Shown here: one piece after another, positions 6,887-7,165 of the stretch
Layout of the letters: every line of letters starts with the position of its first letter
How positions within the stretch are numbered: position 1 is the stretch's first letter
Assembly (NCBI GenBank): GCA_030745885.1
Contig: JASLNR010000033.1
Coordinates: 1-61,535, forward strand
Length of the DNA stretch: 61,535 nucleotides
DNA from: Candidatus Thalassarchaeaceae archaeon
Lineage (GTDB): Archaea; Thermoplasmatota; Poseidoniia; Poseidoniales; Thalassarchaeaceae
Direction: 5' to 3'
The notes under the pieces: generated by a model
Databases searched by the model: none
The model's input: the letters and a program-made list of their open reading frames with translations, nothing else
What the model was told of the DNA's origin: nothing
Position numbers and translations under genes: made by a program

Positions 6887-7165
6887 ATGTCGGCACGTAA
6901 CGAGACGCCACACAAGGTGCTGCAGGAACTAGGACAGAAGAAGTGCAACGGCTCTTGGGATGCCTCGACTGAGAACCTGTCTATGGATCAGATCAAGAGT
7001 GTCGCTGAGACCCAAAGGGACCGTTTGACAGGCAAGACTCTGTACGCTCGCTGCCGCGAGGTCATGGGGACTTGCGTGGCGATGCGCGTGCGAGTAGAGG
7101 GCATGGAACCAAAGGCTGCACTCAATGCAATGACCGAGGGGGAGTTCAACGAGCATTTCAGTTAG
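6887..7165 (+). CDS. rpl11: Shortened ribosomal protein uL11: C-terminal domain only
   Basis: A 92-residue protein in the position normally held by uL11, between spt5 and uL1. Residues 29-92 match the archaeal uL11 C-terminal RNA-binding domain: 'NLSMDQIKSVAETQRDRL', 'REVMGTCVAMRVRVEG' and a final 'EGEFNEHFS' correspond to family motifs such as LT(M/L)EQVxxIA, EVLGTCxSMGVTVEG and DxGxYDEYF. Just before, 'PHKVLQELG' matches the linker between the two domains. The N-terminal domain of about 70 residues is absent, and only 84 bases separate this ATG from the spt5 stop, so it is not lost to a nearby frameshift. A start at 6827 would add 20 residues unlike uL11; a purine-rich GGGAG before 6887 supports the shorter form. 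The domain that remains binds the GTPase-centre rRNA; the missing one forms the mobile stalk-base surface contacted by translation factors. Confidence 0.85.
   Translation: MSARNETPHKVLQELGQKKCNGSWDASTENLSMDQIKSVAETQRDRLTGKTLYARCREVMGTCVAMRVRVEGMEPKAALNAMTEGEFNEHFS

What the first reader, a model, noticed from the sequence alone, without database searches (positions are those of the whole stretch)
6887..7165. uL11 reduced to its C-terminal RNA-binding domain
In the syntenic uL11 position (spt5-[uL11]-uL1-uL10-P1) the gene encodes only the linker and C-terminal domain, about 92 residues instead of about 160. The motifs EVMGTC and RVRVEG are clearly uL11, but the N-terminal domain, which forms the movable stalk base contacted by elongation and release factors, has no coding space: only 84 bp separate the ATG from spt5. 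Known from the family: the C-terminal domain alone can bind the GTPase-centre rRNA. Inference: either the lineage runs its stalk base without the N-terminal domain, or a separate protein supplies it.
Basis: partly seen in the sequence, partly recalled or inferred. Interest (0 to 1): 0.8.

Follow-up and report, generated by a model that had tools for sequence, protein, structure and literature searches.

The report
Ocean archaea's half-sized ribosomal protein uL11
Members of a widespread order of ocean archaea carry only the RNA-gripping half of a universal ribosomal protein, and the half that normally touches the translation factors could not be found elsewhere in their genomes.

Summary
Confirmed. 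Window 6887-7165 (+) encodes a 92-aa uL11 made of the linker helix and C-terminal rRNA-binding domain only. Pfam Ribosomal_L11 matches (30 bits, cut-off 21.4); Ribosomal_L11_N does not; 84 nt separate it from spt5. It is not an assembly error: in 111 of 111 loci of Marine Group II archaea (Poseidoniales) the gene is 91-93 aa, counting two TTG starts. The N-terminal domain (NTD) is over cut-off in 0 of 193 genomes of the order, against 14 of 14 controls and 197 of 292 genomes of the phylum. A profile from close relatives gave no credible hit. Elsewhere in the class (Marine Group III) the gene is full-length and follows spt5. The one exception, G500, holds a Marine Group III contaminant contig. 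The AlphaFold model best matches archaeal uL11 of the P-stalk base (5d8h, TM 0.86). A1067 and A1095 of the rRNA site are kept in 33 of 33 copies. Best reading: one ancient NTD loss at the base of the order, and a CTD-only stalk base. An unrecognisable replacement protein is not excluded. Functional consequences are inferred.

The parts
6887..7165 (+). CTD-only uL11 (92 aa): linker helix plus C-terminal rRNA-binding domain; NTD missing
6803..6886 (+). 84-nt gap between spt5 stop and uL11 ATG; no room for an NTD
5936..6802 (+). Spt5 (NGN and KOW) with an N-terminal NUDIX-like domain (GTG at 5924 also possible)
5646..5927 (+). SecE (Sec61 gamma)
7219..7863 (+). uL1
7860..8879 (+). uL10/P0 with the RL10P_insert (EXT) domain retained; probable TTG start overlapping the uL1 stop (start read by eye)
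8895..9209 (+). P1 stalk protein (assigned from position and the acidic tail ending GGFEGLGSLFG; not scanned on its own)

Best explanation
The gene is the order's only detectable uL11. Its NTD was lost once, on the stem of Poseidoniales after the split from Marine Group III. The remaining linker helix and CTD dock on rRNA helices H43/H44 and hold the GTPase-associated centre in shape (inferred from fold and rRNA conservation). Factors are recruited by the retained uL10-P1 stalk and meet the rRNA loops carrying A1067 and A1095 directly, without the NTD (inferred). Shown: truncation, order-wide conservation, purifying selection in one measurable pair, predicted fold, kept rRNA site. Inferred: incorporation into the ribosome, single loss, altered factor contacts.
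For: NTD over cut-off in 0/193 order genomes, controls 14/14; class 19/339, one of them (G500) by a contaminant. The short gene is found in the same 193 genomes in 166 (Pfam CTD over cut-off) or 168 (own profile). Length 91-93 aa in 111 of 111 loci. dN/dS 0.11 against L001, the only one of 55 pairs with dS below 1.5. Model pLDDT 84.6; top match 5d8h_C (M. jannaschii P-stalk base, TM 0.86, 1.5 A). A1067/A1095 kept in 33/33 rRNA copies. In the phylum sample, 0 of the 14 NTD-less genomes not listed in the order have a CTD over cut-off, so CTD-only uL11 was seen only in this order. uL10 keeps its insert domain.
Against: No ribosome, proteome or structure from these archaea was seen. Sequence profiles cannot exclude a replacement without sequence similarity. 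25 of 193 order genomes lack even the short gene at E<=0.001; incompleteness is likely but completeness was not reported. No rRNA change marks the loss: the U1061G pattern also occurs in NTD-bearing relatives (31 of 59 matching genomes).
Confidence: 0.78

Rival explanations
1. The NTD, or a functional stand-in, is supplied in trans by a separate protein too diverged for sequence profiles.
For: The NTD is found in 14 of 14 control genomes and in 197 of 292 genomes of the phylum, so its role is probably costly to lose. A fold-level genome-wide search was not possible.
Against: 0/193 by Pfam and no credible hit by a close-relative profile; the one new neighbouring domain is NUDIX-like.
Confidence: 0.15
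2. Assembly error, local deletion or pseudogene in one genome.
For: The window's own genome is not held.
Against: The same length in 111 of 111 loci; the 120 listed of 196 database homologues are 82-129 aa and none has the NTD annotated (the tool only admits candidates of about 51-161 aa); purifying selection in the one measurable pair.
Confidence: 0.01
3. The NTD moved into the new N-terminal domain of the neighbouring Spt5.
For: The extension lies directly upstream, occurs in Poseidoniales loci and is unmatched in 8 of 8 Marine Group III loci.
Against: It matches Pfam NUDIX (24 bits, cut-off 21.1; 6 of 24 members at E<=0.01) and the 50 best listed structure matches of its model are NUDIX-type or IPP-isomerase entries by title, with no uL11.
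Confidence: 0.01
4. The short protein no longer acts on the ribosome and serves another role.
For: No direct evidence that it binds the ribosome.
Against: It lies between spt5 and uL1, its model fits uL11 of the P-stalk base, and the rRNA site is conserved.
Confidence: 0.05

Closest known systems
Archaeal uL11 (e.g. M. jannaschii, PDB 5d8h/5col; Marine Group III uL11)
   Same: CTD fold, linker helix, position after spt5, rRNA target
   Different: The whole NTD (about 70 residues with the proline-rich GPPLGP stretch) is missing
uL11 CTD-rRNA crystal chains (1hc8, 1mms chain B, 1y39)
   Same: 70-74-residue CTD chains in complexes with GTPase-centre rRNA; they are among the fold matches
   Different: Recalled to be laboratory fragments or partly resolved chains; here the CTD with linker is the natural full product
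uL11-null yeast and E. coli AM68 ribosomes (PMC9122527, PMC4490557; passages seen)
   Same: Show that cells can live without the NTD; slower growth is stated for yeast
   Different: There the whole protein is absent in laboratory strains; here a natural order keeps the CTD

Membership tests
uL11 ribosomal protein family | C-terminal rRNA-binding domain (PF00298) | tested here: met
   30 bits, cut-off 21.4; 28 of 28 members at E<=1
uL11 ribosomal protein family | N-terminal domain (PF03946) | tested here: not met
   No match at E<=1 in the window protein; 0 of 193 order genomes over cut-off
uL11 ribosomal protein family | CTD fold with linker helix as in the rRNA-bound form | tested here: met
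   Predicted model: 5d8h_C TM 0.86, rmsd 1.5 A; free form 5col 0.59-0.65
uL11 ribosomal protein family | Place in the secE-spt5-uL11-uL1-uL10-P1 cluster | tested here: met
   (P1 by position and tail only)
uL11 ribosomal protein family | Conserved H43/H44 rRNA target | tested here: met
   33 of 33 copies tried keep A1067 and A1095, with changes at 1061, 1083 and pair 1091-1100
uL11 ribosomal protein family | Bound to the ribosome | not testable with these tools
   Needs purified ribosomes
NCBIfam PRK01143 (L11 equivalog) | Score at or above the 162-bit cut-off | tested here: not met
   57.6 bits, positions 77-158 of 164

The most novel reading that the evidence does not exclude
An entire order of ocean archaea translates with a naturally NTD-less stalk base: a universal factor-contacting ribosomal domain has been dispensed with, factor gating runs on rRNA and the P-stalk alone, and these archaea are insensitive to thiopeptides because half of the binding cleft is gone.
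Probability: 0.6. Interest if true: 0.85.

Novelty: new variant of a known kind. Interest (0 to 1): 0.72.

Why it matters
The uL11 NTD was found in all 14 bacterial and archaeal control genomes and is reported to touch elongation and release factors. A wild lineage that removed it gives a natural test of what the NTD is for: whether factor gating, termination and thiopeptide sensitivity truly need it. Several NCBI records call this protein hypothetical, so annotation hides it, and it bears on ribosomal marker sets for marine archaea.

Tried and rejected
Weak NTD hits below cut-off. Of, eleven loci were read by eye: kleisin/ScpA-like 342-344 aa frames, uL10, antisense and other frames. Of the 15 listed matches six were fetched: in five the frames read were phosphomannomutase-like or other enzymes; in L173 no long frame was seen. 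The nine others (E 0.07 or worse) were not read. Gene names here are recognised by eye, not by a tool.

rRNA marker of the loss: U1061G is in 33 of 33 Poseidoniales copies, but its pattern occurs in 59 of 292 phylum genomes, of which 31 are NTD-bearing. Rejected. U1083G (32 of 33) was seen against only five control sequences and not tested further.

Rows dropped or limited: L189 (G012, second rRNA with a canonical site, probably a contaminant) and repeat copies of the same genomes (L180, L184-L186) were left out of the 33. The GAC query found 45 of 145 genomes; 30 of these loci plus L181-L183 were read. The search pattern itself fixed A1067 and A1095, but no copy tried failed it. L102-L131 are the 30 best CTD scores, not a random draw.

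G313's 610-aa frame is a spurious long frame around the same short gene. In L105, L110 and L120 the spt5-uL11 distance is 575-1018 nt; in L105 and L110 the frames there look like small membrane proteins, not an NTD (L120 was not listed), and the three genomes G083, G356 and G387 are among the 193 without NTD. G416, G417 and G424 of the class showed neither domain. Four order genomes list two CTD matches; not followed up.

Literature: ten searches, with capped listings, showed no paper on an NTD-less uL11. Look-ups for L11 in the main text of PMC6461757 and PMC6336850 (MGII genomes), PMC3353972 and PMC9258230 found none. Subscription papers and supplements were not covered.

Full report
What is there. 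The frame 6887-7165 (+) encodes 92 aa from an ATG; the spt5 stop ends at 6802, so 84 nt lie between. Pfam gives only the RNA-binding domain PF00298 (30 bits, cut-off 21.4), and NCBIfam's L11 model aligns only from position 77. The neighbours are SecE, Spt5, uL1 and uL10 by family match, then P1 by position and acidic tail.

Who carries it. A genome scan kept 80 of 104 relatives; the record titles name Marine Group II, Poseidoniales, Thalassarchaeaceae/Thalassarchaeum or, less exactly, Euryarchaeota or Thermoplasmatota. The closest named homologue from a named taxon (P0006, 92%) is from Candidatus Thalassarchaeaceae, which NCBI places in Candidatus Poseidoniales, class Poseidoniia, phylum Thermoplasmatota. 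In 111 loci including the window the predicted length is 92 (78), 93 (22) or 91 (9); two scored as 60 have a TTG start 32 codons earlier, giving 92. Of 103 loci with an spt5 hit in the same direction, 100 have at most 141 codons between the spt5 stop and the uL11 stop, against about 156 in full-length relatives. The other three (L105, L110, L120) have 575-1018 nt in between; in the two whose frames were listed these look like small membrane proteins. Of 196 database homologues the 120 listed are 82-129 aa, nearly all 92, and none carries the NTD family.

No NTD elsewhere. The tool names no groups for these genomes; I read 'order of G001' as Poseidoniales because G001 holds locus L001. PF03946 is over cut-off in 0 of 20 and 0 of 193 genomes, with 14 of 14 controls positive. 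The same 193 show the CTD in 166 over cut-off and the short gene in 168 with its own profile; 25 do not, probably from incompleteness. A profile of ten Thermoplasmatota NTDs, five of them from Marine Group III-type loci, gave 12 of 193 at E<=1, the best 0.0125 with a stop inside; the hits read are other genes. Weak Pfam hits also looked like chance.

Where it was lost. In the phylum sample 197 of 292 genomes have the NTD over cut-off. By comparing handles across, 81 of the 95 without it are listed in the order; the other 14 have no CTD over cut-off either, so there the gene is missing rather than cut (one search hid three rows, so some of the 14 could belong to the order). In the class 19 of 339 have the NTD. 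I read their proteins; one, L134, is 88% identical to the L11 named from Marine Group III euryarchaeote CG-Epi2, and the others read alike. One of the 19, G500, also carries the short gene; its full-length copy lies on an 8.2-kb contig that is 83-88% identical over 2.2-3.1 kb to several Marine Group III loci (67% to a more distant one), hence contamination. In 8 of 8 Marine Group III loci a short Spt5 lies just before the uL11 locus; the full-length proteins are, and a SecE hit is seen in 5 of 8. One loss on the Poseidoniales stem is the simplest history; no tree was built.

Is it functional. dN/dS against L001 is 0.11, the only one of 55 pairs with dS below 1.5. Among 28 diverse members the invariant residues include LG, NG, LTG, GTC and MR. 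The AlphaFold model (pLDDT 84.6) has helices 7-15, 33-42, 52-66 and 75-83. Its best PDB match is M. jannaschii uL11 in the P-stalk base (5d8h), TM 0.86, 1.5 A; the free form 5col fits worse, TM 0.59-0.65. PMC9122527 (passages) reports that the linker folds into helix 3 only on the ribosome, that the CTD binds rRNA and that the NTD contacts factors. What is kept is therefore the rRNA-docking part.

The rRNA partner. In 33 Poseidoniales GTPase-centre sequences A1067 and A1095 are invariant (E. coli numbering recalled). G1091-C1100 is U-A in these and in the one Marine Group III sequence, a compensated pair. U1061G is universal here, but its pattern is also found in 31 NTD-bearing genomes of the phylum, so it does not mark the loss.

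Mechanism. PMC3677378 (passages) shows RF1 touching the proline-rich helix of the L11 NTD; PMC5960728 (passages) places thiostrepton between NTD prolines and A1067/A1095. With the NTD gone uL11 cannot make these contacts. I infer that the P-stalk, whose uL10 keeps its insert domain, and bare rRNA loops serve the factors, and that thiopeptides bind poorly. Yeast without uL11 lives but grows slowly (PMC9122527), and E. coli AM68 lacks L11 (PMC4490557), so this is possible.

Novelty. I saw no report in ten capped searches or in L11 look-ups of four papers (listed in Tried and rejected). JGI names the protein ribosomal protein L11; several NCBI records call it hypothetical. I rate it a new variant of a known kind.

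Noticed in passing
window 5936-6355: Spt5 carries an N-terminal NUDIX-like domain: 99 of 122 loci tested hit; the 23 misses are 8 Marine Group III loci, the contaminant L151 and 14 others, several of them short stretches. The box (GDPSDTDAIVARVTECTG) lacks the usual RE..EE pattern (recalled), so it may be non-catalytic.
   Followed up: partly
L105 1808-2212, L110 473-1397, L120 between spt5 and uL11: 575-1018 nt between spt5 and uL11; in L105 and L110, whose frames were listed, with small membrane-protein-like frames.
   Followed up: partly
Poseidoniales 23S rRNA, E. coli position 1083 (L206-L235, L181-L183): U1083 is G in 32 of 33 copies and U in the five control sequences; cause unknown.
   Followed up: no
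Poseidoniales and Marine Group III 23S rRNA, E. coli pair 1091-1100: G-C replaced by U-A, a compensated change in 33 Poseidoniales copies and the one Marine Group III copy.
   Followed up: no
L151 (G500:C36): 8.2-kb Marine Group III contig inside a MAG listed with Poseidoniales; contamination.
   Followed up: yes
L189 (G012:C27): A second, lower-scoring 23S rRNA with a canonical GTPase centre in a Poseidoniales MAG; probably contamination.
   Followed up: no
L153-L160: In 8 Marine Group III loci no uL1 or uL10 hit follows uL11 within the fetched stretch, so the cluster appears split there.
   Followed up: no
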